The translations under genes and the position numbers were made by a program. The notes under the pieces are model-generated. The model saw nothing but the letters and a program-made list of their open reading frames with translations, was not told the origin of the DNA and ran no database searches. 64,000 nucleotides of DNA from an uncultured bacterium (GTDB taxonomy: Bacteria > Pseudomonadota > Alphaproteobacteria > Rhodospirillales > Rhodospirillaceae), in assembly GCA_903888485.1 (NCBI GenBank), contig CAISTS010000032.1, positions 62,001 to 126,000 on the forward strand. Direction: 5' to 3'. Within the stretch, counting starts at the first letter, position 1. Each line of letters begins with the position of its first letter. This document shows positions 6,753 through 56,944 of this stretch, in pieces.

Positions 6753-7028
6753 ATGCGGTTGGCAGCTTTGCTTCTGATTCTCGTGTTCGGCGCGCCGGTG
6801 GCGGCGCAAAGCACCTGCACGTGCACCTGTTTCGACGGCCGCCCGCAAGGCCTGTGCACCGATCCGACCGAAGTGCCCATCTGCACGCCGGACATCTGCC
6901 CACGCAAACCTTCCGTTCTGACGCCTTTGCCGCCGCTCGATAAAAAGCAGCCGGTGAGCAAATCCGAGTTGGTCTGGAACGAAAAGACCAAGCAATGGGA
7001 CTACCGGCATGTTTGCCCCAAAAACTAG
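6753..7028 (+). CDS. Small cysteine-rich exported protein, function unknown
   Basis: This 91-residue product starts at ATG 6753, with a hydrophobic leader (LAALLLILVFG) ending near PVAAQ, so it is probably exported. The mature protein begins with a dense cysteine cluster (STCTCTCF, then single Cys at GLC, ICT and ICP) and has a C-terminal HVCPKN. It has seven cysteines after the leader, suggesting disulfides or metal binding. I do not recognise the family. It is the only plus-strand gene in this receptor cluster and overlaps the stop of the convergent receptor gene by 4 bases. No convincing Shine-Dalgarno was seen. Confidence 0.6.
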   Translation: MRLAALLLILVFGAPVAAQSTCTCTCFDGRPQGLCTDPTEVPICTPDICPRKPSVLTPLPPLDKKQPVSKSELVWNEKTKQWDYRHVCPKN

Positions 7029-8947
7029 AAGTCGGCGGCGAGCGAAACCTGCACGCGGCGGCGGTCGATGGGGAAATAGGTTCCGGTCGGCCCGAGGTTC
7101 CAGGCAAACACGTTGGTCACGTTGCGCATCTGGACACGCAATGTCGCCGCCGTAGCACCCAGGCGGAAAGCATAGCGCGCGCCGAAATGGCCCGCCGTGA
7201 AACCGGGCACGCGCGACGTATTGGCAAGGTTGCCATAACGTGCCGAGAGGTTCTCGATCTGGCCGTCGAGCGAGAATCCCGCCCATGCCTTCGGCCCGTA
7301 TTGCATATTCAGCCGTAGAACGCGGGGGAAAGGTCCCAGCGGTTCGCGCCCGAAGCGCCCGCTGGTCACCGCGGGGCCTGTCACCCGAGGCTGCAACAGA
7401 ACCGCGCCCGCGACAATCGTGAGCCCCTCGGCCACCTGACCGGTCAGCGACATCTCCGCGCCGCGGTGGCGCACCTGGCCCAATTGCGTAAAGACATTCG
7501 CCGGGTCGAGATTGAAGAACGGCTTTTCGATCTCGAACATTGCCGCGACAATGCGCAAGCGCGGTGTGAGGGCGTAGCGAAAGCCGGCGTCTACCTGCGA
7601 GGTGCGCGTGGCCGGTACGGATTCGCCGCGATTGACCGCGTTCTGCGGCGCTTCGCCGGATTCCTCCAGCCCGCGCGCATAGCTGCCAAAGACGGCGAGA
7701 TCTTCGGTGATATACAGCGCCGCGGTCGCGTTGAGCAGCCAAGGACTGTCCTTCGACGTCACCGTTGGCACGCCCGGCTGTATGCTGCGCCGGCGATAGG
7801 AGGTCTTTTGCACACCGAGGCCAATCTCGCCGACGCGCGGCCACAGCCCCTCATAGGCGACGCCGCCTGTCCCTTGACGCACCTTGCTGGCGCTGAGTGG
7901 TCCTAGCGTATAGGCCGGCTCCGGCTCGGGATCGGCGACGCCGATGAACCCGGGGCCCAATGGAAGAGTGACCGAGCCGCCGAAGGCGCGTTTCTTGTCG
8001 CGGCCGCGCGCGATGGCGTGCACGGTGTGCCGTCGCGGGCCTTCGACGAAGATCCGCGACAGCCGCACTTCTCCCGAATAGGAACCCAAACTGTTGCCGG
8101 GAAAGATGATCGCAAAACGATCCGTGCGGCCGTCGGGCTGGGTATTGCGGAAGAAGTTCTCGCCCTGCTCGATGCGGTAGTTGAGCGAGCGGAAGACACC
8201 GGCGCGCAAAGTCCAGGTGTCGGGCAAATTGAAGCGCGCGATGAAGCCGTATGCGCTCTGCTCGGAAGAGAGCTGTGCCCAGTCCTGGCCGTAGTAGACG
8301 CTGCGGTCGATTTTCGGCGGCAGAAACGCCCCGGCGGTGAGCACGGTGTGGCTGGCCTCACGGTCGTCGCGGAAGTTGATAGCCCCGAAGGGAACAATCT
8401 CGATGTCGTCATTGGGCCGCCAGCGGACGATGCCGCCGATGTTCCAGACGAAGGAGGGTGTGGAGGCGGCGCTGCGCTCGAAGATCGCGGCCGCGCCGGC
8501 GCCCATGCTGAGCTTATCGGTCACCAACGGAAACTGCGCGTCGGTCTCCAGGCTGACCTCGTTGTAGTAGCCGTAGGTGGCGAGGGCGCTGACGACGGTA
8601 CTGTCACCCGGCATGCGCAGGCGGGAGTCGGCGATCCCCGTCGGCGCCGGGAACGGATAGGACTGCGCGCTGATTCCCACACGCACGGTGGTGCCGCTGA
8701 TGATGCGGTTAGTGGTGTCGCCCTGGCGGTCGAAATAGAGCCCCTCGATGCGCAGATTCCCCGCCTCGGTGGGCGAGAAACCGCGCACGTCGCCCGCGCT
8801 ATAGAGGCCGATGCTCTCATTGCCGACTGTTGTGCCGAAGGCGTCCTGGGCTTCGGTGACGGCATTCTCGCCGGCGCGCTGGGCCAGCGCGCCGTGCGGC
8901 AAGGTGGATAAAATCGTTAGTGCGGTAAATAGCCGAAGCCGACTCAC
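7025..8947 (-). CDS. TonB-dependent receptor (short-plug type), third paralogue
   Basis: This outer-membrane receptor is about 640 residues long and paralogous to those at 658-2601 and 2697-4655. It has NESIGLY, VRGFSP and RIEGLYFDRQ motifs near the N-terminus, then a barrel with GLEESGEAP...NRGESVP and a final LAADF. The best start is GTG 8947. A G-run (GGGGGGG) sits just upstream and translation enters directly into a signal peptide (LRLFTALTILSTLPHGALAQ). An in-frame ATG at 8992 would add 15 residues of non-leader sequence. The GTG lies inside a 15-bp stem (see 8933-9035), so translation may be structurally controlled. The ligand is unknown. Confidence 0.83.
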   Translation of the reverse strand: MSRLRLFTALTILSTLPHGALAQRAGENAVTEAQDAFGTTVGNESIGLYSAGDVRGFSPTEAGNLRIEGLYFDRQGDTTNRIISGTTVRVGISAQSYPFPAPTGIADSRLRMPGDSTVVSALATYGYYNEVSLETDAQFPLVTDKLSMGAGAAAIFERSAASTPSFVWNIGGIVRWRPNDDIEIVPFGAINFRDDREASHTVLTAGAFLPPKIDRSVYYGQDWAQLSSEQSAYGFIARFNLPDTWTLRAGVFRSLNYRIEQGENFFRNTQPDGRTDRFAIIFPGNSLGSYSGEVRLSRIFVEGPRRHTVHAIARGRDKKRAFGGSVTLPLGPGFIGVADPEPEPAYTLGPLSASKVRQGTGGVAYEGLWPRVGEIGLGVQKTSYRRRSIQPGVPTVTSKDSPWLLNATAALYITEDLAVFGSYARGLEESGEAPQNAVNRGESVPATRTSQVDAGFRYALTPRLRIVAAMFEIEKPFFNLDPANVFTQLGQVRHRGAEMSLTGQVAEGLTIVAGAVLLQPRVTGPAVTSGRFGREPLGPFPRVLRLNMQYGPKAWAGFSLDGQIENLSARYGNLANTSRVPGFTAGHFGARYAFRLGATAATLRVQMRNVTNVFAWNLGPTGTYFPIDRRRVQVSLAADF

Positions 8948-9035
8948 CCAGTCCCCCCCAAGCGGAACCCCCCTCCGCATACCGACCATCATTGCGTGAG
9001 TCGGCTTCGGAACCAAGCCGCTTTCGGGCTTGGTT
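8933..9035 (-). promoter_or_regulatory. Two abutting inverted repeats over the third receptor's start
   Basis: CCGAAGCCGACTCAC (8933-8947) is perfectly complementary to 8996-9010 across a 48-base loop. Directly next to it, AACCAAGCC (9011-9019) pairs with 9027-9035 across 7 bases. In the mRNA order the small hairpin forms first, then the large one, whose 3' arm holds the GTG start and whose loop holds the G-rich Shine-Dalgarno. The segment between them can form a third, competing hairpin (GGCUU with AAGCC). This looks like a possible translational or attenuator switch, but is unproven. Confidence 0.5.
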
Positions 9036-18076: not shown

Positions 18077-21031
18077 TTACATCTTGAAGCGCAGGCCTGC
18101 GCGGAACATGCGGCCCAGGGTGTCATACATCACCGAGTTCACCGCCGTGTTGATGAACGGATTGACGCGCTGCGCAACCGGCACCGGGTCGGTATTCATG
18201 ATGTTGCGGACGTTGAGGAACGCATTCACCGAGGTTTCTTCGCCGATCAGGAACTTGTAGTCGAAGCCCAGGTCGAAGTAGCGAAAGCCCTTGATGTAGT
18301 TGGAGTTGATAGTTTCGTGCTGCGGGGTCGAAGTCGGGCAACCCGTGGTGCAGACGATATAGTTGTTGTTGTACGTACCCGAGCTCATCTGACGCATGGT
18401 GAGCGAGACGTTGATCGGATCGAGATTGTAGGCGAGCTGCGCCGTCAGACGCCAGTCGGGCGGGCCGCCGCCGCTGTTTTCACCGACGTTCTGCGTCAGC
18501 ACCGCGCCCGGGAAACCCGGATTGGCGTAGTCGCGCAGATACAGCGTGGCGTTGCCGTGCAGGGTGAAGTTACCAGCCCAGCTGCTCACCAGATCTTCGG
18601 CGTTCCAGCGGTACGAACCCTCGAGGTCGATACCCTTGGTGTTACGCGTCGCGATGTTGATGTTCGTCGTCTCGATCTGGATGATCTGGCCGATGGTGTT
18701 GTAGGTGGGATGGCCCGGGATCGGGGCCGCACGCGTTATGAACTGACAAAGATCAGGCCGCGTGCCGCCGAAGCAAAGGTCAACGGTGGCCTGCGCGCTG
18801 ATGCCACTGATCGCATCCTTCAGTTGGATGTCCCAATAGTCCGCCGACACGGTGAGACCCGGAATGATCGACGGCGCAACCACCAGGCCGATACCCGTGG
18901 TGTCCGCCTTTTCGGGCTTCAAGCCGGCAAAGCCTCGCGCAATGCCACGGTACTGCGGGGTCGAGCCGTTGAACGGATCCAGCGGCAGGCTGTTCTGGCT
19001 GCCGGTGCCGCCCTGATAGAGTTCGTTCAGGTTCGGCGCGCGGATGTCACGCGAGCGCGTGACACGCAGCTTGACGTCCGGAAACGGCGTGTAGGTCGTG
19101 CCCACCTTCCAGGTCGCCACGAAGCCCGACGTCGAGTAGTCGGTGGCGCGCACCGCCGCATTCAGGTCCCACGCGTCGGCCCAGCTTTCGCCCTTGGCCA
19201 GCGGCACAACGGTTTCGAAAGCGGCTTCCTTGACGGTGACCTTGCCATTCAGCGGCTTGTAGTTACCGCCGAACCAGTTGGTCGTCAGCGAGTTGGCGTC
19301 GGCGATGCTGGTCACCTTTTCCTCGCGATAGGCGACGTTGGCCGACACGGAGACCGGGCCGGCCCAGATATCGAAGGCGTCGCCGCCGAGGGTGGCTTCC
19401 CAAACGTTCTGGACCAGCTTCTGGTAGGTGTAGGACGTACCGTGATCGCCGGTCAGATAGGCGTAGGCAGCGTCGCTGTTCACACCTTCGCCCATCAGGT
19501 TCCAAGGCACGCAACCGGGCATGTCGTTGGCGGTCGTGGCGTCGGTGTTGACGCGGCAGACGATCTGGCCGTTGGCGTTTCGGACGGCGTCGGTGGCGGC
19601 AGCGAAGCGGTCACGCAAGGTGACGCCGATCACGTTGATCGAGCCGCGGCTGAAACCGTTCTGGAAATAGGCATCCCAATTCCAGTCCTTGTTGAAAGCG
19701 CCGAACTTGCCGTTCGCGCCCACGACGTGGCGATTCACCATGCGGGTGTTGTTGGTGAAGATGCTCGGCATATCGCGGTTGAAGCTGCCGATGGTCAGGG
19801 TCGTGAGGCCCAGCTGCAGCATGCGCGTGCGCACGGCTTCCGGGATGAAGGCGTTATCGACCTTGATCGCGTTAGCGCCGCTGGCAGCGTTGCCTGGCTG
19901 GAACTGCGTCCAGGCCTCGCCGTAGGTACGGCCGCTGCCCCAGGCAGCGGAACCGAAGAGTGTGATGTTATCGCTGATCTCGTACTGGACGCGCGTGAAG
20001 AGATTTTGGCGTGATTCTGACGGATCAAGGGAGAACATGCCGTCGTGGGCGTCGGTATACTTCCAGTCACCGCCGTGCATGGAAGGATCGAACACGACGT
20101 CGCCGTATTGCAGCTGGTTGACCGAACCGCCTGGGCCGAAATACGTGCCCTTCAGCGGGCCGCTGACCACGATGCCGCCCGGGCTGCCGTTCGAGTTACC
20201 GACACTGTCGGGGAAGAGCAGCAAGCGGGGCTGGCCGTTGGTCGCGGTGTAGGCGGGGTTGGTGATGTAGCCGATGCCGATGAAGGCCCAATCGCGCTGC
20301 GGGCCGTCGAGCACGCCGGCTTTATAGACCTGCTCGCCCGAGGCGATGACGTGGCCGCGGCCGCCGGCGAAGGGGAAGCCGCCGGTCAGTGCGAGGCGAT
20401 AGCTCTCGTCGTCGAGGTAGGATGTGACGCCGCCGGAAATTTCGCCCTTTATGCCGGTGTATTCCTTATCGAGGACGAAGTTGACGACGCCGGCGACGGC
20501 GTCCGAGCCGTAGACCGACGAAGCGCCGCCGGTGACGACTTCAACGCGGGAGATGAGCTGCTGCGGGAAAGCGTTGATGTCGACCGCGCCGGTGAGCAGC
20601 GAGCCGACCGAACGTTGGCCGTCGAGCAGCACCAGGGTGCGGGTGGCGCCGAGGTTGCGGAGGTTAAGGGTTGAAACACCGGCCGTGCCGCTGCTGACGC
20701 CGGTCTGCCCGGTGTTGGGCGCGGCGGAGCCCGCGAACACCGGCATGGTGTTCACGAACTCGGCGATGTTCGACGTGGCCGAGTTTTCGATGGCGGCCGT
20801 GTCGACGACCGACAGCGGCGTCGGGGCTTCGTAACCTTCGCGAATGATGCGCGAACCGGTGACGATCACTTCGCCGAGATCTTCCTCGGCCTGTTGTGCG
20901 GCGGCGGCCTGTTCAGCCGCGTAAGCCGCATAAGGAGCGCTCATCGCGGCCGTCGCCAGCGCCAGCGCACTCACGGTCGACAACGCACGCTGCTGAAAGC
21001 GGCGGAGATTGCGTGGGGTAACAATAAACAT
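18077..21031 (-). CDS. TonB-dependent receptor, large (984 aa), copy A
   Basis: ATG 21031 follows GGGAGAAAG and opens a long signal peptide (VSALALATAAMSAPYAAYA). After an Ala/Gln-rich stretch comes the plug (about 50-185), starting LGEVIVTGSRI with EGYEAPTPLSVVD, LNLRNLGATRTLVLLDGQR and VEVVTGGASSVYGSDAVAG, all standard plug motifs. The barrel has a Cys pair in CRVNTDATTANDMPGC and later Cys-containing loops (VCTTGCP). It ends LRFKM, not Phe. It is a close duplicate of the gene at 21192-24161 on the same strand, 160 bases away. The nearby PQQ dehydrogenase suggests sugar-type nutrition, but the ligand is unknown. Confidence 0.92.
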   Translation of the reverse strand: MFIVTPRNLRRFQQRALSTVSALALATAAMSAPYAAYAAEQAAAAQQAEEDLGEVIVTGSRIIREGYEAPTPLSVVDTAAIENSATSNIAEFVNTMPVFAGSAAPNTGQTGVSSGTAGVSTLNLRNLGATRTLVLLDGQRSVGSLLTGAVDINAFPQQLISRVEVVTGGASSVYGSDAVAGVVNFVLDKEYTGIKGEISGGVTSYLDDESYRLALTGGFPFAGGRGHVIASGEQVYKAGVLDGPQRDWAFIGIGYITNPAYTATNGQPRLLLFPDSVGNSNGSPGGIVVSGPLKGTYFGPGGSVNQLQYGDVVFDPSMHGGDWKYTDAHDGMFSLDPSESRQNLFTRVQYEISDNITLFGSAAWGSGRTYGEAWTQFQPGNAASGANAIKVDNAFIPEAVRTRMLQLGLTTLTIGSFNRDMPSIFTNNTRMVNRHVVGANGKFGAFNKDWNWDAYFQNGFSRGSINVIGVTLRDRFAAATDAVRNANGQIVCRVNTDATTANDMPGCVPWNLMGEGVNSDAAYAYLTGDHGTSYTYQKLVQNVWEATLGGDAFDIWAGPVSVSANVAYREEKVTSIADANSLTTNWFGGNYKPLNGKVTVKEAAFETVVPLAKGESWADAWDLNAAVRATDYSTSGFVATWKVGTTYTPFPDVKLRVTRSRDIRAPNLNELYQGGTGSQNSLPLDPFNGSTPQYRGIARGFAGLKPEKADTTGIGLVVAPSIIPGLTVSADYWDIQLKDAISGISAQATVDLCFGGTRPDLCQFITRAAPIPGHPTYNTIGQIIQIETTNINIATRNTKGIDLEGSYRWNAEDLVSSWAGNFTLHGNATLYLRDYANPGFPGAVLTQNVGENSGGGPPDWRLTAQLAYNLDPINVSLTMRQMSSGTYNNNYIVCTTGCPTSTPQHETINSNYIKGFRYFDLGFDYKFLIGEETSVNAFLNVRNIMNTDPVPVAQRVNPFINTAVNSVMYDTLGRMFRAGLRFKM

Positions 21032-21191
21032 CGTAACTTTCTCCCAAATTAATAATGGTCGTGACAATCGCATGCGGCGGCGCTGCGCCCGAGGCCCAGC
21101 ACCGCCGCTTAGTCCGTTCCTTCGAACCGCTCCACCTCCTCAGGCGGATCGGCAAGGAATTCTCTTCGTTTCTTTCCCCGTAGCTAAAGGC

Positions 21192-24161
21192 TTACATCTT
21201 GAAACGCAAGCCCGCGCGGAAGACGCGGCCCAGCGTGTCGTATGTCGACGAGTTCATCGGCGGCTGGATGTACGGGTTGGTACGCTGAGCTACTTGTACC
21301 GGATCCGTGTTCATGATGTTACGCACGTTGATGAACGCCGTCGCATCGACATCTTCGCCGATACCGAAGCGGTATTGGAGACCAAGGTCGAAATAGGTGT
21401 AGCCCTTGAGGTAATTGAAGTTGGCGGTTTCGTTCTGGGTCGTCGAAGCCGGGCAGCCTGCGGTGCAGGTGATCCAGTTGTTGTTATACGTGCCCGAGCT
21501 CATCTGGCGAACCGTGAGCGTCACGTTGATCGGATCGAGCGTGTAACCCAACGTGGTTGAAATGCGCCAATCGGGCGGGCCGCCGCCGCCGCCGCCGCCG
21601 CCGCTATTTTCACCGACGCGCTGCGAGAGCACGCCGCCCGGGAAGCCCGGGTTCGTGTAATCGCGCAGGTACATGGTGGCGCTGCTGTGGAGGTTGAAGT
21701 CCCCAGCCCAACCCTCCACCAGATCTTCGGCCAGCCAGCGATAGCTGCCTTCCAGGTCGATGCCTTTGGTGTTCTGAGTTGCAATGTTAATGTTCGTGAT
21801 CGTGATCAGGTCGATCGCCCCGATCGTCGCGTACGGGGCAACTCCCGTCGGGGGGAATCGAGTGATAAATTGGCAGAGATCCGGACGATCACCGGAATAA
21901 CACAAGTCCACTGTGGCCTGCGCACCGATAGTGCTGATGCCATCCTTCAATACGATGTCCCAGTAGTCGGCAGAGACCGTCAGATTTGGAAGGAACGACG
22001 GCGAGATCACCAGGCCGACGCCAAGTGTATCGGCTTTTTCCGGCTTCAGACCGGTAAAGCCCTGCTGGAGGAAGCGGTGCTGCGGCGATGTACCGGTAAA
22101 GGGATCGCGCGGCAACGCGGCAGAGGTGGGCACGCCGCCGGCGTATAGTTCGTTCAAGTTCGGCGCACGGATGTCGCGCGAGCGCGTCACGCGCAGCTTG
22201 ACCTCCGGGATAGGTGAATAGGTGGTGCCCACCTTCCAGGTGACCACCACGCCGGAGGTCTGGTAGTCAGTCACACGTACCGCGCCGTTGAAGTCCCAAT
22301 TATCCGCCCAACTTTCTCCCTTGGCCAGGGGGACAACCGTTTCGAACGAGGCTTCCTTCACGTTGTACTGCGCGATAAGGGGCTTGTAGTTGCCGCCGAA
22401 CCAGTTGCTCGCTTGAGCATTGGCATCGACAATGCCGCGTGATTTTTCCTGACGGTAAGCAAAGCTCGCCGAAACCGAAACTGGGCCGGCCCAGACGTCG
22501 AACGGATCGCCGCCGACGGTAGCTTCCGCCACGTTCTGAATCAATTTCTGGTAGCTGTAGGCATAGCCGTGGTTGCCCGTCAGGTAGGCGTAGGCCGCTT
22601 CGCTGTTGACGCCCTCGCCCATCAGGTTCCACGGCACGCACCCGGCCATATCGTTGGCAGGGTTGGCATCGGTGTTGACGCGGCAGACAATCTGTCCGTT
22701 CGGGTTGCGGACGGCATCGATGGCCGCGTTGAAGCGGTCACGCAAGATCACGCCATGAATGTTGAGCGAGCTGCGCGTATAGCCGTTCTGGAAGTATGCG
22801 TCCCAGTTCCAATCCTTGCCGCCGGCGGTAAATTTGCCGTTAGCGCCGATGACGTTGCGATTCAGAATACGCGGGTTGTTCGAGTAAACACTGGGCATGT
22901 CCGAGTTGTAGCTGCCAAGAGTCAGGCTGGTGACCCCCAGCGTCGTCATGCGGGCACGCAGGACATCCGGGATGAAGGCGTTATCGGCCTTGATTGCGTT
23001 GGCGCCGGCTGCGGCATTACCCGGATTGAAGATGGCCCACGCCTGCCCCTTAGTGCGTCCGCTGCCCCAAGAGGCTGATGCGAACACAGTGAAGTTGTCG
23101 GTGACTTCATACTGGACGCGCGCGAAGACATTCTGACGCGATTCCATTGGGTCGAGCGAGAACATCTTGTCGTGAACGTCGGTATACTGCCAGTCGCCGC
23201 CATGCATCAGCGGATCGAATACAACGTCACCGTAATTGAGCTGATTGACCGAGCCCCCAGGACCGAAGTACGTGCCTTTGAGCGGGCCGTTCACAACGAT
23301 GCCGCCCGGCGTACCGTTGGAATTGCCAACGCGGTCGGGGAAATACAGCCAGCGTGGCTGCCCGTTCGTGGCGGTGTAAGTAGGGTTGGTTACCCAACCC
23401 ACGCCGGTGAAGGCCCAATCGCGCTGCGGGCCGTCGAAGATACCCGCCTTATAGACCTGTTCGCCCGACATGATCACATGGCCACGACCACCCGAGAACG
23501 GGAAGCCGGCCGACAGGTTGATCTTGTAGTTTTCGTCGTCGAGGTACGAGGTCGCGCCACCGGAGATTTCGCCTTTGATTCCGGTGTACTCCTTGTCGAG
23601 AATGAAATTGACGACGCCGGTGATGGCGTCTGAGCCGTAGACGGCCGAGGCACCGCCGGTGACCACTTCGACGCGGGAAACGAGCTGCTGCGGCAGGGCG
23701 TTGATGTCGGCGACGCCGGTGAGGAGCGACCCGACGACGCGCTGGCCATCAAGCAGGACGAGCGTGCGCCCGCCGCCCATATTGCGCAGATTGAGAGTCG
23801 AGACGCCGGCAGTGCCGGGGCTGATGCCGCTCTGTCCGGTGTTCGGCGCCTGCGAGCCCGAGAATACCGGCATGGTGTTGACGAACTCGGCGATGTTCTG
23901 AGTAGCCGAAGCTTGGATGGCGGCAGCGTCGACGACCGAAAGCGGTGTCGGTGCTTCGTAACCTTCGCGGACGATGCGCGAACCGGTGACGACGACTTCG
24001 CCCAGATCCTCCTCTGCCTGCTGCTGCGCAGCAGTTTGCTCCGCGGCATAGGCGCTGTATGGCGCGCCGAGGGCAACGGTGACTAAGGCCAGCGCGCTTA
24101 CTGTGGACAGCGCGCGCTGATGCAAGTGGCGGACGTTACCTCGAACAGCAATCGAATTCAT
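21192..24161 (-). CDS. TonB-dependent receptor, large (989 aa), copy B
   Basis: This has the same domain order as copy A: signal peptide ending near YSAYA, plug with LGEVVVTGSRIVREGYEAP and VVTGGASAVYGSDAITG, then the barrel with the CRVNTD...GC pair and RFKM end. ATG 24161 is preceded by GGAGGGGAAG, a strong ribosome site. Most of the length is plainly homologous to copy A, so the pair arose by tandem duplication. Differences cluster in extracellular-type loops (for example YAGGVPTSAALP versus YQGGTGSQNSLP). An eight-residue glycine run near the C-terminal third replaces three glycines in copy A. It is divergent from the cytochrome c pseudogene and PQQ dehydrogenase. Confidence 0.92.
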   Translation of the reverse strand: MNSIAVRGNVRHLHQRALSTVSALALVTVALGAPYSAYAAEQTAAQQQAEEDLGEVVVTGSRIVREGYEAPTPLSVVDAAAIQASATQNIAEFVNTMPVFSGSQAPNTGQSGISPGTAGVSTLNLRNMGGGRTLVLLDGQRVVGSLLTGVADINALPQQLVSRVEVVTGGASAVYGSDAITGVVNFILDKEYTGIKGEISGGATSYLDDENYKINLSAGFPFSGGRGHVIMSGEQVYKAGIFDGPQRDWAFTGVGWVTNPTYTATNGQPRWLYFPDRVGNSNGTPGGIVVNGPLKGTYFGPGGSVNQLNYGDVVFDPLMHGGDWQYTDVHDKMFSLDPMESRQNVFARVQYEVTDNFTVFASASWGSGRTKGQAWAIFNPGNAAAGANAIKADNAFIPDVLRARMTTLGVTSLTLGSYNSDMPSVYSNNPRILNRNVIGANGKFTAGGKDWNWDAYFQNGYTRSSLNIHGVILRDRFNAAIDAVRNPNGQIVCRVNTDANPANDMAGCVPWNLMGEGVNSEAAYAYLTGNHGYAYSYQKLIQNVAEATVGGDPFDVWAGPVSVSASFAYRQEKSRGIVDANAQASNWFGGNYKPLIAQYNVKEASFETVVPLAKGESWADNWDFNGAVRVTDYQTSGVVVTWKVGTTYSPIPEVKLRVTRSRDIRAPNLNELYAGGVPTSAALPRDPFTGTSPQHRFLQQGFTGLKPEKADTLGVGLVISPSFLPNLTVSADYWDIVLKDGISTIGAQATVDLCYSGDRPDLCQFITRFPPTGVAPYATIGAIDLITITNINIATQNTKGIDLEGSYRWLAEDLVEGWAGDFNLHSSATMYLRDYTNPGFPGGVLSQRVGENSGGGGGGGGPPDWRISTTLGYTLDPINVTLTVRQMSSGTYNNNWITCTAGCPASTTQNETANFNYLKGYTYFDLGLQYRFGIGEDVDATAFINVRNIMNTDPVQVAQRTNPYIQPPMNSSTYDTLGRVFRAGLRFKM
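21579..21602. repeat. (GCC)8 trinucleotide run in receptor copy B
   Basis: Eight perfect GCC units read as eight consecutive glycines on the minus strand (ENS-Gly8-PPDW). Copy A has SGGGPPDW at the same place. The run keeps frame when it changes length, so slippage would alter loop length only. Confidence 0.9.
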
Positions 24162-24479
24162 CTTCCCCTCCTGAATGAACACCGAATGGTCGCGATACGG
24201 CTGTGCTGCGGCTAACGGCCCGATCGGCGCGTCTCCCCGCCCGCCGCACGAATGCGGCGTGAGTTACAATTTTTTGATATCTCCCCGTAGGCTCCCCTTC
24301 GCGGCACCCGAGCCGCGTAACCAATGAACGCTACGCGAGACGACTTGCGTTGACAACCAACAACCGTGCTAAACTTTTGTCCGGATTTGGCTGCCGGAAG
24401 TGGGTGGCTTGGGAGATAAGGGGTTGCTGTCCCGCCAGACGGAACCGCAGCCCTTCATAAGGTGCTTCGGGTAACGGTG
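24162..24479. other. Divergent intergenic region between receptor copy B and the cytochrome/PQQ unit
   Basis: About 318 bases with no convincing gene. On the plus side a TTGACA lies at 24350-24355 as a possible -35 for the cytochrome/dehydrogenase unit, with only a weak A/T-rich -10 (AACTTT) after it. Near 24240-24258 is a small hairpin (CCGCA...TGCGG). Receptor copy B has its ribosome site at 24162-24172. Confidence 0.5.
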
Positions 24480-50488: not shown

Positions 50489-51997
50489 ATGCCCTACCAG
50501 TCCTTGCGCGATTTCATGACCCGTCTGGAGCAGTCCGGACGGCTTTTGCGCGTAAAGACCCCGGTCTCCACCCACCTCGAAATGACCGAGATCCAGACCC
50601 GAGTCCTGGCCGAGGGCGGGCCCGCTATCCTGTTCGAGAACGTCATCAAGGCGGACGGGTCGAAGTCCGCCATCCCGGTGCTGGTGAACCTGTTCGGAAC
50701 TGTCGAGCGTGTGGCCTGGGGCATGGACCGCGAGCCCCATCAGCTGCGCGAGATCGGCGAGACGCTGGCGTTCCTCAAGCAGCCCGAGCCGCCGGGCGGC
50801 TGGAAAGAAGCGTGGGAGATGCTGCCGCTCGTCCGCACAGTCATGGCGATGAAGCCGAAGACGGTCTCTAGCGCGCCGTGTCAGGAGATCGTGCTGCGAG
50901 GCGAGGACATCGACCTCGCCAAACTTCCCGTGCAGACCTGTTGGCCGGGCGACGTGGGGCCGCTGATTACCTGGCCGCTTGTCGTCACGAAGGGTCCGGG
51001 CGGCGACAAGCGCGACGTTTATAACCTCGGCATTTACCGCATGCAGGTGACGGGGCGCGACACGACACTCATGCGCTGGCTCAAGCATCGCGGCGGCGCG
51101 GGGCATTACGACCGTTGGAAAGGCCAGAAGCGCGAGCCGTTGCCGGCCGCCGTCGTCCTCGGCGCCGATCCCGGCACGATCCTCGCCGCGGTCACGCCCG
51201 TTCCCGATACACTGTCCGAGTATCAATTCGCCGGCCTCTTGCGTGGCCGCAAGGTCGAACTCGTCGACTGCAAGACCGTGCCGCTGCAAGTGCCGGCCGA
51301 GGCCGAGATCGTCATCGAAGGCCACGTCATGCTCGACGAGCACGGCGACGAAGGTCCCTTCGGCGATCACACCGGCTTTTATAATGCCGTCGAGAAATTC
51401 CCGGCGTTCAAGGTTTCGGCCATCACCATGCGCCGCGATCCGATATATCTCTCGACCTATACCGGACGTCCGCCCGACGAGCCCAGTATCTTGGGCGAAG
51501 CGCTCAACGAAGTGTTCATTCCCCTGCTGATCCAGCAGTTCCCGGAGATCGTCGACTTCTGGCTGCCGCCCGAAGGATGCAGCTACCGCATCGCCGTGGT
51601 GAGCATGAAGAAAGCTTATCCCGGTCACGCCAAGCGCGTGATGATGGGCGTGTGGAGTTTCCTGCGCCAATTCGTCTACACCAAGTTCGTCATCGTCGTG
51701 GACGCCGACATCAATGCGCGCGACTGGAAAGATGTGATGTGGGCGATCTCAACGCGCATGGATCCGGTGCGCGATGTCACCATGGTCGAGAACACGCCCA
51801 TTGATTATCTCGACTTCGCCTCGCCTGCGCCTGGCCTGGGCGGCAAGATCGGCCTTGATGCCACGACAAAAATGCCGCCCGAGACCACACGCGAGTGGGG
51901 CACCGAAATCCGCATGGCCGACGACATTGTCAAGGTTGTGACCGAGAAGTGGGCCAGCTACGGCCTGCCCGGCAGCGGCAAGAAAATCTGGAAGTAA
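50489..51997 (+). CDS. ubiD: UbiD-family 3-octaprenyl-4-hydroxybenzoate decarboxylase
   Basis: This 502-residue protein (E. coli UbiD is 497) decarboxylates the polyprenylated hydroxybenzoate intermediate of ubiquinone synthesis, using prenylated FMN. Visible blocks are [30 protein letters not shown] (with the conserved Arg), [23 protein letters not shown] and [12 protein letters not shown], near the active-site Glu/Asp. It begins at ATG 50489, a good match to family start sites. It is a single gene. The prFMN-supplying ubiX is not in the window. Confidence 0.95.
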
Positions 51998-52396
51998 ATT
52001 TGGTATTGCGCGTGGCGGCTATCCGCTAACTTCCGCGCGAACACACTCGAGAGGATGGGCGCCGCTGCGTGCAGGTACCATGACCTCTTTCGTTTCATCT
52101 CTCTTCTCTCTCTGACGGCGTCCGAAGCGGCCGGCGCAGCAAAGTAGATCAAACGCATTCTGCACAGTTGTCGCGCATACCGCGATTCCTACCTCCGCTT
52201 GCGCGCTTCCGCGGCGCGTGCAACGCGTTGCGCGTGCATTACCCTTTCGTAACGCACGCGCGGGCAAACATCGACAGCAAGCCAACCGTTGTGTGTGCAA
52301 GCTGCCTATCTCGGCTGAGCCGCTTCAACTACTCGCGGTAAACGTGTGAGAACACGATGCAGGGCATAGGCGCCACACACACAACGTGAGGATCCT
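51998..52396. other. Intergenic region before the Slam cargo gene
   Basis: About 400 bases with no gene call. A CT-rich strip (TCTCTCTTCTCTCTCT) lies near 52090-52110 and a perfect 12-bp palindrome GCAACGCGTTGC lies at about 52220-52231, embedded in GCGTGCA-like repeats. The CACACACACAACG run (near 52375) precedes the ribosome site GTGAGGATCC. The palindrome is a candidate operator. I saw no Fur box. Confidence 0.45.
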
Positions 52397-53281
52397 ATGA
52401 ATAACTTTATGTCCACTCTTCTGCTCACTTCCGCACTGACGGTTTCCGTTGGCGTAGCTGCCCAAGAAGCTCAGCCGCTGACCTTCGATAACGCCCCGAA
52501 TGGATACGAACTCGACCTGTCGCAAAATAGCGGCGCCGGCGTCGTAACGTTCGGTCAACGCGGCGACAGCAAGGCCGGCTCGATGCCGAATGTCACGAAC
52601 TCGTCCATCACCAACACCCAGCAGGGCTATGATTTGGCTCTGCCGGACTACAATGGCACGACGACGTGGTCAGTCGGCAGTGACTCTGCCTTCACCGCGA
52701 CCTCGCCTAACGGTACGCATCTCAGCGGCAGCTTCTCCGGCGCCGCTGCTGCGAACCTGACCTACGCCAACTACGGCGCATGGGAGACGACCGGGTCCAG
52801 CGCTGCTGGGTTGTCGCTCGGCGTCTTTGCAAGCGGCGTGCCGGGCCCCAACGGCAACGATCGTCCGATCAGTGGCGGTGCGAGCTATAACGGCAAGGCC
52901 ACTGGCTACGCGACCTACGTCGATGCCGCGCAGCTCAAGCTCAACGGCGACGTGACGCTGAACGCCGACTTCGGCAACAACACGATCTCGGGCCGCGTCA
53001 CCAACATGACCGCCGCGTCGATCGATGCCACCAACCGTAGTCTCGGCGTAGCGATTGCCACCAACGACATCGCGCTGAGCAACGGTCTTATCACCGGCAC
53101 CTCCTTCGCCGGCGATGCGCGCATCGCGTGGACGGCAAGCCAGCAGATGAGCCTCGGCGGCGCTGTCGGCAGCTTCGGCGGCGGGTTCTACGGACCGAAT
53201 GCCGCGGAAGCCGCGGGCACGATCTCGATGACCAATGCCGGTACGGGCAACATCGTCGCTGCGTTCGGCGCGGCGAAGTAA
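52397..53281 (+). CDS. TbpB-like beta-barrel protein, probable Slam (type XI) cargo
   Basis: This 294-residue exported protein starts at ATG 52397 (GAGG 8 bases before). Its signal peptide ends near GVAAQEA and has no cysteine, so it is not a lipoprotein. An N-terminal segment of about 90 residues (NAPNGYELDLSQNSG, SITNTQQGYDLALPDYNG) is followed by the TbpB_B_D-type eight-stranded barrel (about 155-294): SGGASYNGKATGYATYV, ADFGNNTISGRVTNM, ITGTSFAGDARI, GGGFYGPNAAEAAGTISM and the closing VAAFGAAK. These are hallmarks of Slam-dependent surface proteins such as TbpB and the soluble hemophilins. The cargo of the Slam at 53473-54774 would be released or surface-held without a lipid. What it binds is unknown. 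Confidence 0.85.
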   Translation: MNNFMSTLLLTSALTVSVGVAAQEAQPLTFDNAPNGYELDLSQNSGAGVVTFGQRGDSKAGSMPNVTNSSITNTQQGYDLALPDYNGTTTWSVGSDSAFTATSPNGTHLSGSFSGAAAANLTYANYGAWETTGSSAAGLSLGVFASGVPGPNGNDRPISGGASYNGKATGYATYVDAAQLKLNGDVTLNADFGNNTISGRVTNMTAASIDATNRSLGVAIATNDIALSNGLITGTSFAGDARIAWTASQQMSLGGAVGSFGGGFYGPNAAEAAGTISMTNAGTGNIVAAFGAAK

Positions 53282-53310
53282 GCTCTTTTCGGTTTCTCCT
53301 CGACGCTGCG

Positions 53311-53338
53311 GCGGCCGCCTGGAGGGGCGGCCGCTTTT
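53311..53338 (+). terminator. Rho-independent terminator between cargo and Slam
   Basis: GCGGCCGCC (53311-53319) pairs with 53326-53334 across TGGAGG, followed by TTTT. It lies 30 bases after the cargo stop and about 134 bases before the Slam start. Partial termination would give more cargo than Slam mRNA. Confidence 0.85.
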
Positions 53339-53472
53339 CTTTGCGTGAAGCGCGCCTGCAGGTAGGGCGCGAAATCGCGAAAAAGTCGCCTTTTGCGGAG
53401 AACAAGTATGTGGGGACCGCCGTTGGTATGAAAGCCGCCCAGCTCTCGGAACGGTAGATCAACAGAGGTCGC

Positions 53473-54774
53473 ATGAAATTCCTTGTCGGTGTCGCGGCCG
53501 TCTTTTTGACGGCAGCCGCTTACGCGCAAACGCCTGCAACCCTGCCCGCGGCGCTCGAACAAGCACGCGTCGCCCTGGGACGGGGCGATAACGCCGCCGC
53601 CGAACAACTGTTGTCCGCGGTGGACCCGGCCACAGTCGACGTTAACGACCTGGACTTCCTGCGCGGCACGCTCGCCTTCCAGACCGAGCGCTATCGTGAC
53701 GCAGCCGAATACTTCGGCCGCATCCTCGCACGCGACCCCAGCCTCAACCGCGTGCGCCTGGAGCTTGCGCGTGCACGCTTCATGGCCGGCGACGACGGCG
53801 AAGCCGAGCGCCAGTTCCGCGCCGCCATTGCAGCCGGCGTGCCGCCGGCCGTCGCGCGCAACGTCGGCGGATTCCTCGGCGAGCTCCGCCGGCGCCGCCA
53901 CTACGATTTCGGTATCGGCGTGGGCATTGCCGCCGACAACAACATCAACGTCGCCACCACGGCGCAGACCGTCGATCTGTTTGGTTTGCCTTTCGACATC
54001 GACCAGAGCGCGCGCAAGACCTCCGGCTACGGTCTCGCCTTCAACGCCTCGGGCAATTACCAGTGGGATCTCGCCGGCAACGACGTCCGCCTCAAGGTCG
54101 GCGGCCAAGTTTACGATGCCGAGTACAAAGACGGCGACTTCGTCGATCGCCAGGTCGCGCTCTACGCCGGCCCGCGCTTCATGTTCAAGGACAATTCGGA
54201 ATTCTCGGTGATTGCGACCGGCGCGCATCGCTGGTACGGCGGCAAGAATCTGACCGATGCCTACGGCGCGCGCATCGAAGGCGAAAAGCCGCTGGGCCAT
54301 CGCTTCCTTTTCAACGGCTCGGCGAGCTGGCAGAACCAGACGTACCTGCGCCCGCAGTTCTCGTCCTACAGTGGGCCGGTATATCAGGTGAACACGGTGC
54401 TGACCTATGCCCAGCGCAGCGGCTTCCTGCGCGGCAACATCGGTGTCGTACGCGAGAATGCGCGCATCGAACCCTTGCGCGACTGGCAATACGTGTTTGG
54501 CGCCGGCATCTATCGCCATACCCTGCCGGCGCACTTCTCGGCCTATGTCAGCACGCAGCTGGCGCTTGCGCGCTATGACGCACCGCTGGCGGCTTTCGGC
54601 GTGAAGCGCGGCGACGAACAGATCGACGTGCGCCTCAGCATATCGAATGCCAAGCTCACCTTTGGCCGCTTCACGCCCATCTTCACCTATATCCACACCG
54701 AGCGGTTCTCGAACATTCCGATCTACGCTTATAGCCGCGACCGCTTCGAGCTCGGCTTCAATTGGACGTTCTAG
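53473..54774 (+). CDS. Slam-family surface lipoprotein assembly modifier (type XI secretion outer-membrane protein)
   Basis: This 433-residue protein starts at ATG 53473 (GAGG upstream) with a signal peptide ending near AAYAQ. Residues about 25-135 are TPR-like (QARVALGRGDNAAAEQLLS, DFLRGTLAFQTERYRDAAEYFGRIL). The rest is a DUF560 barrel of beta strands with YDFGIGVGIAADNNIN at its start. It closes with the Slam signature FTPIFTYIHTERFSNIPIYAYSRDRFELGFNWTF-like block (final residues end in NWTF). Slam proteins translocate TbpB-like proteins to the cell surface. The cargo gene is directly upstream with the same strand and its own terminator between. Confidence 0.9.
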   Translation: MKFLVGVAAVFLTAAAYAQTPATLPAALEQARVALGRGDNAAAEQLLSAVDPATVDVNDLDFLRGTLAFQTERYRDAAEYFGRILARDPSLNRVRLELARARFMAGDDGEAERQFRAAIAAGVPPAVARNVGGFLGELRRRRHYDFGIGVGIAADNNINVATTAQTVDLFGLPFDIDQSARKTSGYGLAFNASGNYQWDLAGNDVRLKVGGQVYDAEYKDGDFVDRQVALYAGPRFMFKDNSEFSVIATGAHRWYGGKNLTDAYGARIEGEKPLGHRFLFNGSASWQNQTYLRPQFSSYSGPVYQVNTVLTYAQRSGFLRGNIGVVRENARIEPLRDWQYVFGAGIYRHTLPAHFSAYVSTQLALARYDAPLAAFGVKRGDEQIDVRLSISNAKLTFGRFTPIFTYIHTERFSNIPIYAYSRDRFELGFNWTF

Positions 54775-55431
54775 TTAAAAACGGTAGGCGAGACCGACCT
54801 TCAACACCGGGTAATAACGGAAGTCGTCGATATCGTCCTTGATGTCGCGCCGCTCGCGCTCGAGATCGGCGGCGAAGCCGGGGATGGCGTTGGCCGGCCC
54901 GGTCGCATTGAGGAACACCTTGCTGCCGCCCTGAAACATGACGCCGGCGTCGAAGACGAAACTAAACCCGGGCTCGTCGCGGTTGCTGGTATAGCCGAGG
55001 CCGGCATAGGGCGCGAAGTCGTTGAAACGCGCGCCGCCGTCCAGGTTGCCGACTTGCGACGGCGCATACATGGTGCCGCCGATCTCGACGCTGCTGGTCG
55101 GCGTCGCGGTGAGGTCGATCTTGTTGCGGTTCAGGAAGCCGCCGCCGGTGAGACGAAAGCTGGTTTCGAACAGATAGAGATCGCCGAGCAGGCCGAAGCT
55201 CATCAGACGCAGATCACCGTCGTAGTCGACGTCCTCGCCGCTGACGCCGCGCGAGATGCTGAAGAAGTTGCCGTTCACGCGCACAGCCAGCATGTCCGAG
55301 ATATCCATACCCACTTCGAGGCCGCCACCCTGGGTGCCCACGGCAATACCGATGGACTGGGCGCCCGCGGTTATGGGCATAAAAGCGGCTCCCGCCACGA
55401 TCAGGGCGGCGAAAGCAAAACGAAAACCCAT
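54775..55431 (-). CDS. Outer-membrane beta-barrel protein, unknown
   Basis: This 218-residue protein starts at ATG 55431 behind GGAGGTTTCC. Its leader ends near ITAGAQS. The rest is alternating polar/hydrophobic strands with a final LKVGLAYRF, the terminal Phe marking a barrel. GGARFNDFAPYAGLGYTSN and FSFVFDAGVMFQGGSKV match OmpW/OmpA-like small barrels. A DIKDDIDDFRYYP block near the C-terminus is acidic. Its stop abuts the Slam gene's stop on the opposite strand, so the two are convergent. The function is unknown. Confidence 0.85.
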   Translation of the reverse strand: MGFRFAFAALIVAGAAFMPITAGAQSIGIAVGTQGGGLEVGMDISDMLAVRVNGNFFSISRGVSGEDVDYDGDLRLMSFGLLGDLYLFETSFRLTGGGFLNRNKIDLTATPTSSVEIGGTMYAPSQVGNLDGGARFNDFAPYAGLGYTSNRDEPGFSFVFDAGVMFQGGSKVFLNATGPANAIPGFAADLERERRDIKDDIDDFRYYPVLKVGLAYRF

Positions 55432-55600
55432 GGAAACCTCCGGACGACAGTGCGGGGTGCACGAGGAGGTAATGCGAAAAACCGCCCCGGGTTCCCGCAC
55501 TGCTTGAAACCCGCAGCCGGGCGTTGCGGCCAAGACACAGGGTTGCAGCCGGCCGAAAAACCGGCAGACTGCGAGCCCCTCCCTTTCCCCGGCCAATTTC

Positions 55601-56944
55601 ATGTCCCAGCCCGACCTCCTCAACCTTCTCTCCGACCTGATCGCCGACGCCAAGAAAGCCGGCGCCGATGCCGCCGACGCCATCGTCGTCGATGGCACCT
55701 CCATTTCGGTGACGACCCGGCTGGGCAAACTTGAGCAATTGGAGGGCTCGGAAGGCGGCGACATCGGCTTGCGCGTGCTCATGGGTAAGCGTCAAGCCAT
55801 TGTCTCCAGCGCCGACCGCTCACGCGAGGCGCTGAAGGAACTGGTCGAGCGCGCCGTGGCCATGGCGCGCACGGTCCCTGAGGACCCTTACTGCGGCATC
55901 GCCGCGCCCGGACAGCTCGCCACATCGCTGCCCGAGATCGACATCTGCGATCCCGCCGAGATCTCGGCGCAGACGCTGATCGACATGACCAAGACCTGCG
56001 AAGCCGCGGCGCTGGACGTGAAGGGTGTCACCAATTCCGAAGGCGCGTCGGCCTCGTGGGGGCGCACCAAGGTCGCCATCGCCGCCTCCAACGGTTTCGT
56101 GCGCTCTTATGCCTCGTCAGGCTCGTCCCTGAGTGCTTCGGTGATTGCAGGCGATTCCGACAAGGGCATGGAGACCGACTACGACTACACCTCGGCGGTG
56201 TACTTCAGCGACCTGAAGGCGCCCGCCGCTATCGGCCGCGGCGCAGGCGAGCGCGCCGTGCGCAAGGTGGGCGGGCGCAAGATCGCCAGCCGCAAGGTGC
56301 CGGTGATCTTCGATGCCCGCGCCGCCCGCGGGATCGTCGGCCACCTCCTCGGCGCCATCAATGGATCGTCGGTGGCGCGTGGCACCACCTTCCTGAAGGA
56401 CGCCATGGGCACGGAGGTCTTCGCGCCCGGCATCAGCATCCAGGAAGACCCGCACCGCAATCGTGGTCTGAGGTCCAAGCCGTGCGATGCCGAAGGCCTG
56501 CCCAACAGGGCGCGCGCGCTGATCGACAGGGGCGTGCTGACCACCTGGATCCTCGACCTGCGCGCCGCGCGCCAGTTGAACCTCGCGCCCACCGGCCACG
56601 CCACGCGCGGCACCGGCGGGCCGCCCAGCCCGGGCACGACCAACGTCTGGCTGGAAGCGGGCAAGCTTACGCCCGCTGCCCTCATGGCGGATATCAAGGA
56701 AGGCCTGTTCGTCACCGACCTCGTCGGCCAGGGCGTGAACACCGTCACCGGCGACTACAGCCGCGGCGCCGTGGGCTTCTGGATCGAGAACGGCGAGCTG
56801 ACGTACCCGGTCCATGAGGTGACCATCGCGTCCAACCTCAAGGACATGTTCAAGCGCCTCGTGCCCGCGAGCGATCTCGACATGCGCTACGGCGTCGATG
56901 CGCCAAGCGTGCGCATCGACGGCATGAGCCTCGCGGGAACCTGA
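55601..56944 (+). CDS. pmbA: PmbA/TldE metallopeptidase-associated protein
   Basis: This 447-residue protein matches PmbA (TldE). It has an N-terminal domain (SISVTTRLGKLEQLEGSEGGDIGLRVL), SGSSLSASVIAG, a central INGSSVARGTTFLKD and the C-terminal GQGVNTVTGDYSRGAVGFWIENGELTYPV. PmbA forms a complex with TldD that cleaves unstructured peptides (for example microcin and CcdA). TldE lacks the HExxxH that TldD has, as here. TldD is not in the window. Start ATG 55601. Confidence 0.95.
   Translation: MSQPDLLNLLSDLIADAKKAGADAADAIVVDGTSISVTTRLGKLEQLEGSEGGDIGLRVLMGKRQAIVSSADRSREALKELVERAVAMARTVPEDPYCGIAAPGQLATSLPEIDICDPAEISAQTLIDMTKTCEAAALDVKGVTNSEGASASWGRTKVAIAASNGFVRSYASSGSSLSASVIAGDSDKGMETDYDYTSAVYFSDLKAPAAIGRGAGERAVRKVGGRKIASRKVPVIFDARAARGIVGHLLGAINGSSVARGTTFLKDAMGTEVFAPGISIQEDPHRNRGLRSKPCDAEGLPNRARALIDRGVLTTWILDLRAARQLNLAPTGHATRGTGGPPSPGTTNVWLEAGKLTPAALMADIKEGLFVTDLVGQGVNTVTGDYSRGAVGFWIENGELTYPVHEVTIASNLKDMFKRLVPASDLDMRYGVDAPSVRIDGMSLAGT

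What the first reader, a model, noticed from the sequence alone, without database searches (positions are those of the whole stretch)
52397..54774. Type XI (Slam) secretion pair with a non-lipidated TbpB-barrel cargo in an alphaproteobacterium
A TbpB_B_D-type barrel protein with an ordinary signal peptide (no lipobox) is followed by a terminator and a TPR+DUF560 Slam. Known Slams move lipoproteins such as TbpB, and a few move soluble proteins such as hemophilins. Here the cargo's N-terminal part is unlike TbpB and no receptor gene is adjacent. This could be a soluble binding protein for haem or another ligand.
Basis: partly seen in the sequence, partly recalled or inferred. Interest (0 to 1): 0.7.

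Follow-up and report, generated by a model that had tools for sequence, protein, structure and literature searches.

The report
Slam secretion pair, unlipidated cargo protein
An uncultured alphaproteobacterium carries a two-gene protein-export system in which the exported protein, fat-anchored to the cell surface in its relatives, appears to have lost its anchor and is probably released; the system itself is of a known kind.

Summary
Window 52397-53281 (+) encodes a 294-aa protein with a TbpB_B_D barrel (E 7e-12). Window 53473-54774 (+) encodes a 433-aa Slam (SlipAM/DUF560, E 1e-23) with TPR helices and a predicted 14-strand barrel. A hairpin terminator lies between them. The predicted cargo fold matches one TbpB lobe, and also fHbp, NHBA and HphA, in the PDB. 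In 289 genomes of the class the two domains co-occur in 19 (2.5 expected).

So this is a type XI (T11SS) pair. Unlipidated cargos are already a large described class (Grossman 2021, 2025), so the system is not new. What the tools add is evolutionary: every relative with a readable N-terminus (8 in its family, 27 further loci) has a lipobox; this cargo does not. Its start codon is homologous to that of its nearest relative, Val20 sits where that relative has the lipid cysteine, and a Pro/Thr-rich stretch is gone. The two Slams are 72% identical. This is probably a local anchored-to-released switch under one Slam type, but it rests on one genome.

Haem binding is unsupported: one non-conserved His, no adjacent receptor. 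The adjacent outer-membrane protein is a pmbA neighbour.

The parts
52362..52396 (+). conserved leader (GGGCATAGGCGCC ... GTGAGGA ... CCT) directly before the cargo start
   Evidence: the same elements lie before the start codon of the nearest relative (G010), so the start codons look homologous (by eye)
52397..52462 (+). cargo signal peptide, residues 1-22, no Cys; probable SPase I site V20-A21-A22|Q23
   Evidence: lipobox pattern absent here, present in 8 of 8 family relatives tested; V20 aligns with the lipobox Cys of G010. Cleavage site inferred by rule; no SignalP was run; no K/R in the first ten residues
52463..52864 (+). cargo handle / effector region, residues 23-156; residues 23-118 are the least conserved part
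   Evidence: 16-36% identity to 7 relatives over residues 23-118 against 37-49% over the barrel; low-confidence beta region in the model
52865..53281 (+). cargo C-terminal TbpB_B_D barrel, residues 157-294, with stop codon
   Evidence: Pfam E 7e-12; Foldseek to TbpB C-lobe 5kkx_B TMt 0.58, NHBA 6cuj TMt 0.70
53310..53335 (+). intrinsic-terminator-like hairpin between cargo and Slam
   Evidence: 11-bp stem, 9 G-C pairs, T-rich tail; fold energy about -27 kcal/mol for the surrounding 56-63 nt
53473..54774 (+). Slam / T11SS outer-membrane protein: probable signal peptide, TPR helices (about residues 26-141), 14-strand barrel (residues 144-432)
   Evidence: PF04575 E 1e-23; AlphaFold2 strand count 14, pTM 0.60; barrel matches OmpG, TMt 0.70
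54775..55431 (-). small outer-membrane protein (weak CarO match), a pmbA neighbour and not part of the pair
   Evidence: CarO NCBIfam E 3e-8, 33 of 300 bits (scanned on the longer ORF 54775-55782); sits beside pmbA in 8 other genomes of the genus, only one of them (G014) with a Slam there

Best explanation
This is a type XI secretion pair. The cargo is made with a Sec signal peptide, cleaved by signal peptidase I (inferred), and carried across the outer membrane by the Slam encoded downstream, which recognises the C-terminal TbpB-type barrel (inferred from the family). Because it has no lipobox it should be released, not anchored. It descends from a surface lipoprotein: in this lineage the lipid cysteine and the Pro/Thr-rich tether were lost while the same Slam type was kept. 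The handle carries the function, most likely binding of a ligand or surface partner that varies between species; the ligand is unknown. The terminator between the genes probably lets cargo be made in excess over Slam (inferred).
For: Domains. Folds: cargo to TbpB, fHbp, NHBA, HpuA and HphA; Slam 14 strands plus helices. Co-occurrence: in 289 genomes of the class 23 have the barrel, 32 the Slam, 19 both (2.5 expected, p 1e-17), 13 of the 19 within 5 kb; in 99 closer genomes 9, 9 and 7. Derived loss of lipidation: lipobox in 8 of 8 full-length family relatives, in 6 of 6 more loci judged by eye, in 20 of 20 readable class loci (two of these are cut at the 5' edge but show the lipobox; L143 is the same protein as L074) and in Novosphingobium pLA3. 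Homologous start and V20/Cys alignment. Slam and cargo trees both group the window with G010 and G014, whose cargos have lipoboxes, 100/100 and 98/97. Handle less conserved than barrel; cargo dN 0.46-0.73 against 0.21 for Slam. Precedent for soluble cargo: PMC8406197, PMC12282271.
Against: No export experiment exists for this pair. The signal peptide has no Lys or Arg in its n-region, so it may be weak. Only one genome shows the unlipidated form. Class loci whose start lay off the fetched stretch could not be read (8 of 29, plus one unresolved), so other unlipidated cargos may exist there. Two relatives (G015, G016) have cargos with no Slam found and G014 has cargo and Slam on different contigs, so pairing is not absolute. 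In the class, 4 of 23 barrel genomes have no Slam match and 13 of 32 Slam genomes no barrel match. The handle model is low-confidence (pLDDT blocks 35-65).
Confidence: 0.8

Rival explanations
1. The cargo is a decaying former lipoprotein: with the lipobox, the n-region charges and the tether gone it is exported poorly and stays in the periplasm or is on its way to loss.
For: No K/R in the n-region and no lipobox; fast protein change; a Slam remnant with a stop exists in G011 and orphan cargos in G015 and G016, so the system is often broken up in the genus.
Against: The frame is intact, the barrel motifs (GFYGPNAAEAAG, FGA) are kept, GC3 is 0.79, the leader is conserved, the Slam is intact and under constraint (dN 0.21, dS 0.85), and a usable VAA|Q site stands where the lipobox was.
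Confidence: 0.15
2. A haemophilin-type haem carrier (HphA/Hpl/HrpC kind).
For: Same size and one-lobe architecture; HphA structures among the matches (8gm3, 7re4). Haemophilin itself uses a single His (PMC8560813 passages), so one His does not exclude it.
Against: HphA uses two His (H43, H106; PMC8560813). Here there is one His in the whole protein, not conserved in the seven aligned relatives; the handle His that G010, G014 and G024 share in a TxHxGxE-like stretch is absent here (by eye). No receptor or haem gene was seen beside it; the genome has 26 TonB-receptor plug matches, none adjacent.
Confidence: 0.1
3. The outer-membrane protein is not a Slam but an exopolysaccharide-type TPR-barrel (BcsC/PelB/PgaA kind), and the neighbouring cargo is a coincidence.
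For: Foldseek ranks BcsC first and second and PelBC third for the model; BcsC appears as a weak NCBIfam hit, E 0.055.
Against: SlipAM E 1e-23, 14 strands (that the polysaccharide barrels have 16 is recalled), and strong genome-wide co-occurrence with TbpB_B_D.
Confidence: 0.02

Closest known systems
T11SS cargo of the haemophilin-like / fHbp-like soluble kind (HrpC, Hpl, HphA; Grossman 2021, 2025)
   Same: Sec-type start without lipid anchor, one handle plus one C-terminal TbpB_B_D barrel, adjacent DUF560 Slam
   Different: its closest relatives are of lipoprotein type; no adjacent TonB receptor; no two-His haem site; alphaproteobacterium without known host
TbpB / LbpB / fHbp / NHBA surface lipoproteins with Slam
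   Same: C-terminal barrel fold (5kkx, 7ket, 6cuj) and Slam pairing
   Different: no lipobox, a single lobe (TbpB has two), no transferrin or factor H context
'Transferrin-binding protein-like solute binding protein' plus Slam of Novosphingobium pentaromativorans US6-1 plasmid pLA3
   Same: adjacent cargo-Slam order; Slam 35% identical over 86%
   Different: that cargo has a lipobox; the window cargo itself finds no match in the plasmid collection
Sphingomonas surface proteins (Grossman 2025, section 15)
   Same: alphaproteobacterial TbpB_B_D cargos; Pro/Thr-rich stretches also in relatives G010 and G014 of the window cargo
   Different: multiple lobes there; one lobe and no Pro/Thr stretch here

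Membership tests
T11SS outer-membrane protein (Slam, DUF560/SlipAM) | SlipAM barrel domain over the curated cut-off | tested here: met
   84.7 bits, cut-off 22
T11SS outer-membrane protein (Slam, DUF560/SlipAM) | N-terminal TPR helices followed by a 14-strand barrel | tested here: met
   helices 26-141, 14 strands 144-432 in the model; TPR_19 passes its cut-off, the TPR_Slam model does not (31.8 of 35.2 bits)
T11SS outer-membrane protein (Slam, DUF560/SlipAM) | export of a cargo depends on it | not testable with these tools
   needs expression
T11SS cargo | C-terminal TbpB_B_D / lipoprotein_C type barrel | tested here: met
   Pfam and Foldseek
T11SS cargo | Sec signal peptide, SPI or SPII | tested here: inconclusive
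   hydrophobic core and VAA|Q site by eye, but no basic n-region residue; SignalP not available
Slam-dependent surface lipoprotein (NF041636) | model cut-off and lipobox | tested here: not met
   45.8 of 80 bits; no Cys
Haemophilin haem carrier | axial His ligand(s) for haem in the handle | tested here: inconclusive
   the two-His HphA site is excluded (one His, H108, not conserved); a one-His site as in haemophilin is only made unlikely (ligands from PMC8560813 passages)
Haemophilin haem carrier | neighbouring TonB-dependent receptor | tested here: not met
   no Plug match adjacent; nearest receptor genes in the window end at 24182, 28 kb away

The most novel reading that the evidence does not exclude
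The locus shows a natural switch from an anchored to a released T11SS cargo inside one genus, with the Slam type unchanged: the lipid cysteine and the Pro/Thr-rich tether disappear together, the Slam keeps exporting by the barrel alone, and a surface receptor becomes a diffusible protein. This would mean that the published split into lipid-cargo and soluble-cargo Slam subfamilies is not a limit of the machine.
Probability: 0.5. Interest if true: 0.5.

Novelty: new member of a known kind. Interest (0 to 1): 0.35.

Why it matters
Grossman 2021 predicted two functional Slam subfamilies that match cargo type (lipidated or soluble; section 6). A pair of Slams 72% identical, one with a lipobox cargo (G010) and one with an unlipidated cargo (this window), at the same chromosomal site (ubiD - cargo - Slam - pmbA), is a natural matched pair for testing whether Slams read the lipid, the barrel or both, and what the Pro/Thr-rich stretch is for. 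It also adds a T11SS cargo lineage of unknown ligand from uncultured alphaproteobacteria.

Tried and rejected
Receptor partner in the outer-membrane protein at 54775-55431: rejected. It sits beside pmbA in 8 other genomes of the genus (G002, G004, G005 in part, G007 in part, G013, G014, G016, G018), of which only G014 has a Slam there.

Linked glycosylation: GT41 (OGT-like) genes lie close to the cargo in G016 and G018. But GT41 match stretches number 7 to 31 per genome in this genus (30 in the window's own; the first look was capped), so chance is not excluded.

Frameshift or wrong start hiding a lipobox: rejected.

Receptors near relatives' cargos: TonB-receptor-like genes lie about 5 kb from the cargos of G014 and G016; ones that look alike by eye also lie in the window, 43 kb from its cargo; not pursued.

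Plasmid collection: no match to the cargo. The dN/dS figures are NG86 values and only rank the genes. The Rfam scan of the window gave only a tRNA. No sigma-70-like promoter was found at 51900-55800 (0, against 1.0 in shuffles).

Literature: five searches. Seen: search listings; of PMC12282271 the outline with abstract, passages and section 15; of PMC8406197 passages and section 6; of PMC8560813 passages. No other paper was opened. In those five listings I saw no paper on this locus or on a lipid-to-soluble switch within one genus; that is not proof that none exists.

Full report
What is there. The window holds a gene pair between ubiD (50489-51997 +) and a convergent small outer-membrane protein gene followed by pmbA (55601-56944 +). 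The first gene, 52397-53281 (+), encodes 294 residues: a hydrophobic N-terminus without cysteine, a variable region, and a C-terminal TbpB_B_D barrel (E 7e-12; FHBP_C E 7.2e-8). The second, 53473-54774 (+), encodes 433 residues: TPR helices and a SlipAM (DUF560, Slam) barrel (E 1e-23). A G+C-rich hairpin with a T-rich tail lies between them at 53310-53335. The own genome holds one SlipAM and one TbpB_B_D match, these two.

Fold tests. AlphaFold2 on the mature cargo with seven relatives gave pTM 0.68 and mean pLDDT 66: most of the barrel confident, handle not. Foldseek against the PDB gave 83 matches at E 1e-3 or better, led by TbpB (3hol, 1.2e-8); the TbpB C-lobe 5kkx_B aligned over 219 columns at 3.6 A (TM 0.51/0.58); fHbp, NHBA (TM of target 0.70), HpuA and HphA followed. 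By sequence alone the PDB gave nothing significant (best TbpB, E 0.16). So the cargo is probably one handle-plus-barrel lobe. The Slam model (pTM 0.60) has helices at 26-141 and 14 strands from 144 to 432; its barrel fits OmpG (TM of target 0.70), while the TPR-plus-barrel polysaccharide exporters BcsC and PelB rank first overall.

Pairing. In 289 genomes drawn from the class, 23 have TbpB_B_D, 32 have SlipAM and 19 have both; 2.5 are expected (hypergeometric p 1e-17), and in 13 of the 19 the two lie within 5 kb. Four barrel genomes have no Slam match (G125, G164, G275, G344) and 13 Slam genomes no barrel match. In 99 closer genomes the counts are 9, 9 and 7. Exceptions there: G015 and G016 have cargo without a detected Slam; G011 has a Slam piece with a stop and no cargo; G065 has a partial Slam match and no cargo.

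The site. In 14 further genus members I fetched the pmbA region. In 9 (G002, G003, G007, G008, G011, G013, G015, G016, G018) ubiD is followed by pmbA, with or without the small outer-membrane protein and with gaps of up to about 1.3 kb, and no cargo or Slam is found between; in 5 (G001, G004, G005, G006, G012) ubiD was not on the stretch. G010 has cargo and Slam at the same place as the window; G014 has the Slam there, at a contig end, and its cargo on another contig; G018 has cargo and Slam elsewhere. The pair thus looks like an accessory cassette, and the small outer-membrane protein is a pmbA neighbour (8 other genomes).

Lipidation. Each of the 8 full-length cargo relatives from the family (G010, G014, G015, G016, G018, G024, two of G043) has a lipobox. 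Three family matches were left out because their N-termini are cut or broken (a third G043 copy, a second G018 copy), as was the G097 fragment. Six further loci from genome contigs (L071, L073-L077) all have one (by eye). Of 29 class loci examined, 20 were readable and all 20 have a lipobox, judged on the printed sequence with the help of a pattern that missed or misplaced some; 18 of them have a complete frame, and two (L120, L123) are cut at the 5' edge but show the lipobox. Nine were not readable: eight because the frame runs off the fetched stretch (L124, L133, L136-L140, L145), one because the frame was not resolved (L126). L143 and L074 are the same protein. Novosphingobium pLA3 has one too. 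The window cargo has none. The leader GGGCATAGGCGCC...GTGAGGA before the start is shared with G010, so the start codons look homologous, and Val20 aligns with the lipid cysteine of G010. G010 and G014 have a long Pro/Thr-rich stretch after the cysteine that the window lacks. Slam and cargo trees both place the window with G010 and G014 (support 100/100 and 98/97). The simplest reading is loss of the anchor in the window's lineage. It rests on one assembly.

Rates. Identity to seven relatives is 16-36% over residues 23-118 and 37-49% over the barrel. Against G010 the Slam has dN 0.21 and dS 0.85; the cargo has dN 0.73 at residues 23-118 and 0.46 at 119-294 (NG86, rough). The cargo-Slam gap with the stop codon is 194 nt here, 16 in G010, 66 in G018, 99 in G024, 36 in G043, 4 in Novosphingobium; strong hairpins occur here, in G018 and in G024.

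Mechanism. Shown: the genes, domains, predicted folds, missing lipobox, co-occurrence. Inferred from the family: Sec export, SPase I cleavage, barrel recognition and translocation by the Slam, release. Known support: Grossman 2021 (PMC8406197; [quoted passage not shown] Grossman 2025 (PMC12282271; abstract, section 15 and passages seen) counts 912 soluble and 96 lipidated haemophilin-like 1 proteins and 285 soluble and 54 lipidated fHbp-like ones. Unknown: the ligand. Haem is not bound as in HphA (two His; PMC8560813, passages): the cargo has one His (H108), not conserved in the alignment; a one-His site is unlikely but not excluded. No Plug match lies beside it, although the genome has 26.

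Organism. Relatives found by name are MAGs labelled Rhodospirillaceae bacterium, uncultured bacterium or, oddly, Candidatus Marinimicrobia. That such records come from freshwater is recalled from the label style and comes from no call.

Counts of readable N-termini were recounted, the haem His row was set to inconclusive, the receptor distances and the terminator control were corrected or added, and 'freshwater' was taken out of the claims.

Verdict. A real T11SS pair of a known kind, with a probably derived unlipidated cargo; moderate interest as a natural matched pair for testing what a Slam recognises.

Noticed in passing
own genome and genus: GT41 (OGT-like, Glyco_transf_41) genes are strikingly expanded: 30 match stretches in the window's genome, 7-31 in its genus (first look capped), while 2 of 14 control genomes have any.
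   Followed up: partly
L040:6323-8500 and L041:3892-6420: A TPR-GT41 gene lies about 200 bp upstream of the cargo in G016 and about 1.6 kb from the cargo in G018, with an MFS gene between; with so many GT41 copies this may be chance.
   Followed up: partly
L039 (G015 C7:36531-37916): An orphan cargo of about 615 aa with two handle-barrel lobes in tandem, TbpB-like in layout, in a genome with no detected Slam.
   Followed up: no
L044 and L045 (G043): Three cargo copies in one genome, two in tandem upstream of its single Slam match.
   Followed up: no
L048:8929-9534 (G011): Slam remnant with a stop, with a transposase-like gene about 3 kb away (transposase recognised by eye, not tested).
   Followed up: no
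L046:8381-9229 (G097): A 282-aa lipobox-type protein without any Pfam match lies directly upstream of the G097 Slam; possibly a cargo too divergent to be recognised.
   Followed up: no
window 757-24182: At least four TonB-dependent-receptor genes (757-2601, 7025-9016, 18077-21073, 21192-24182, all -) at the far end of the window; the first two have no Plug match.
   Followed up: partly
L138, L139, L140: Long class-level proteins end in a TbpB_B_D-like barrel after an unrelated N-terminal part; L140 seems to begin with a FecR-type domain (by eye, untested).
   Followed up: no
L064-L066: Public MAG records titled Candidatus Marinimicrobia that belong to the window's own genus and sit among loci of alphaproteobacteria; the titles look wrong.
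   Followed up: no
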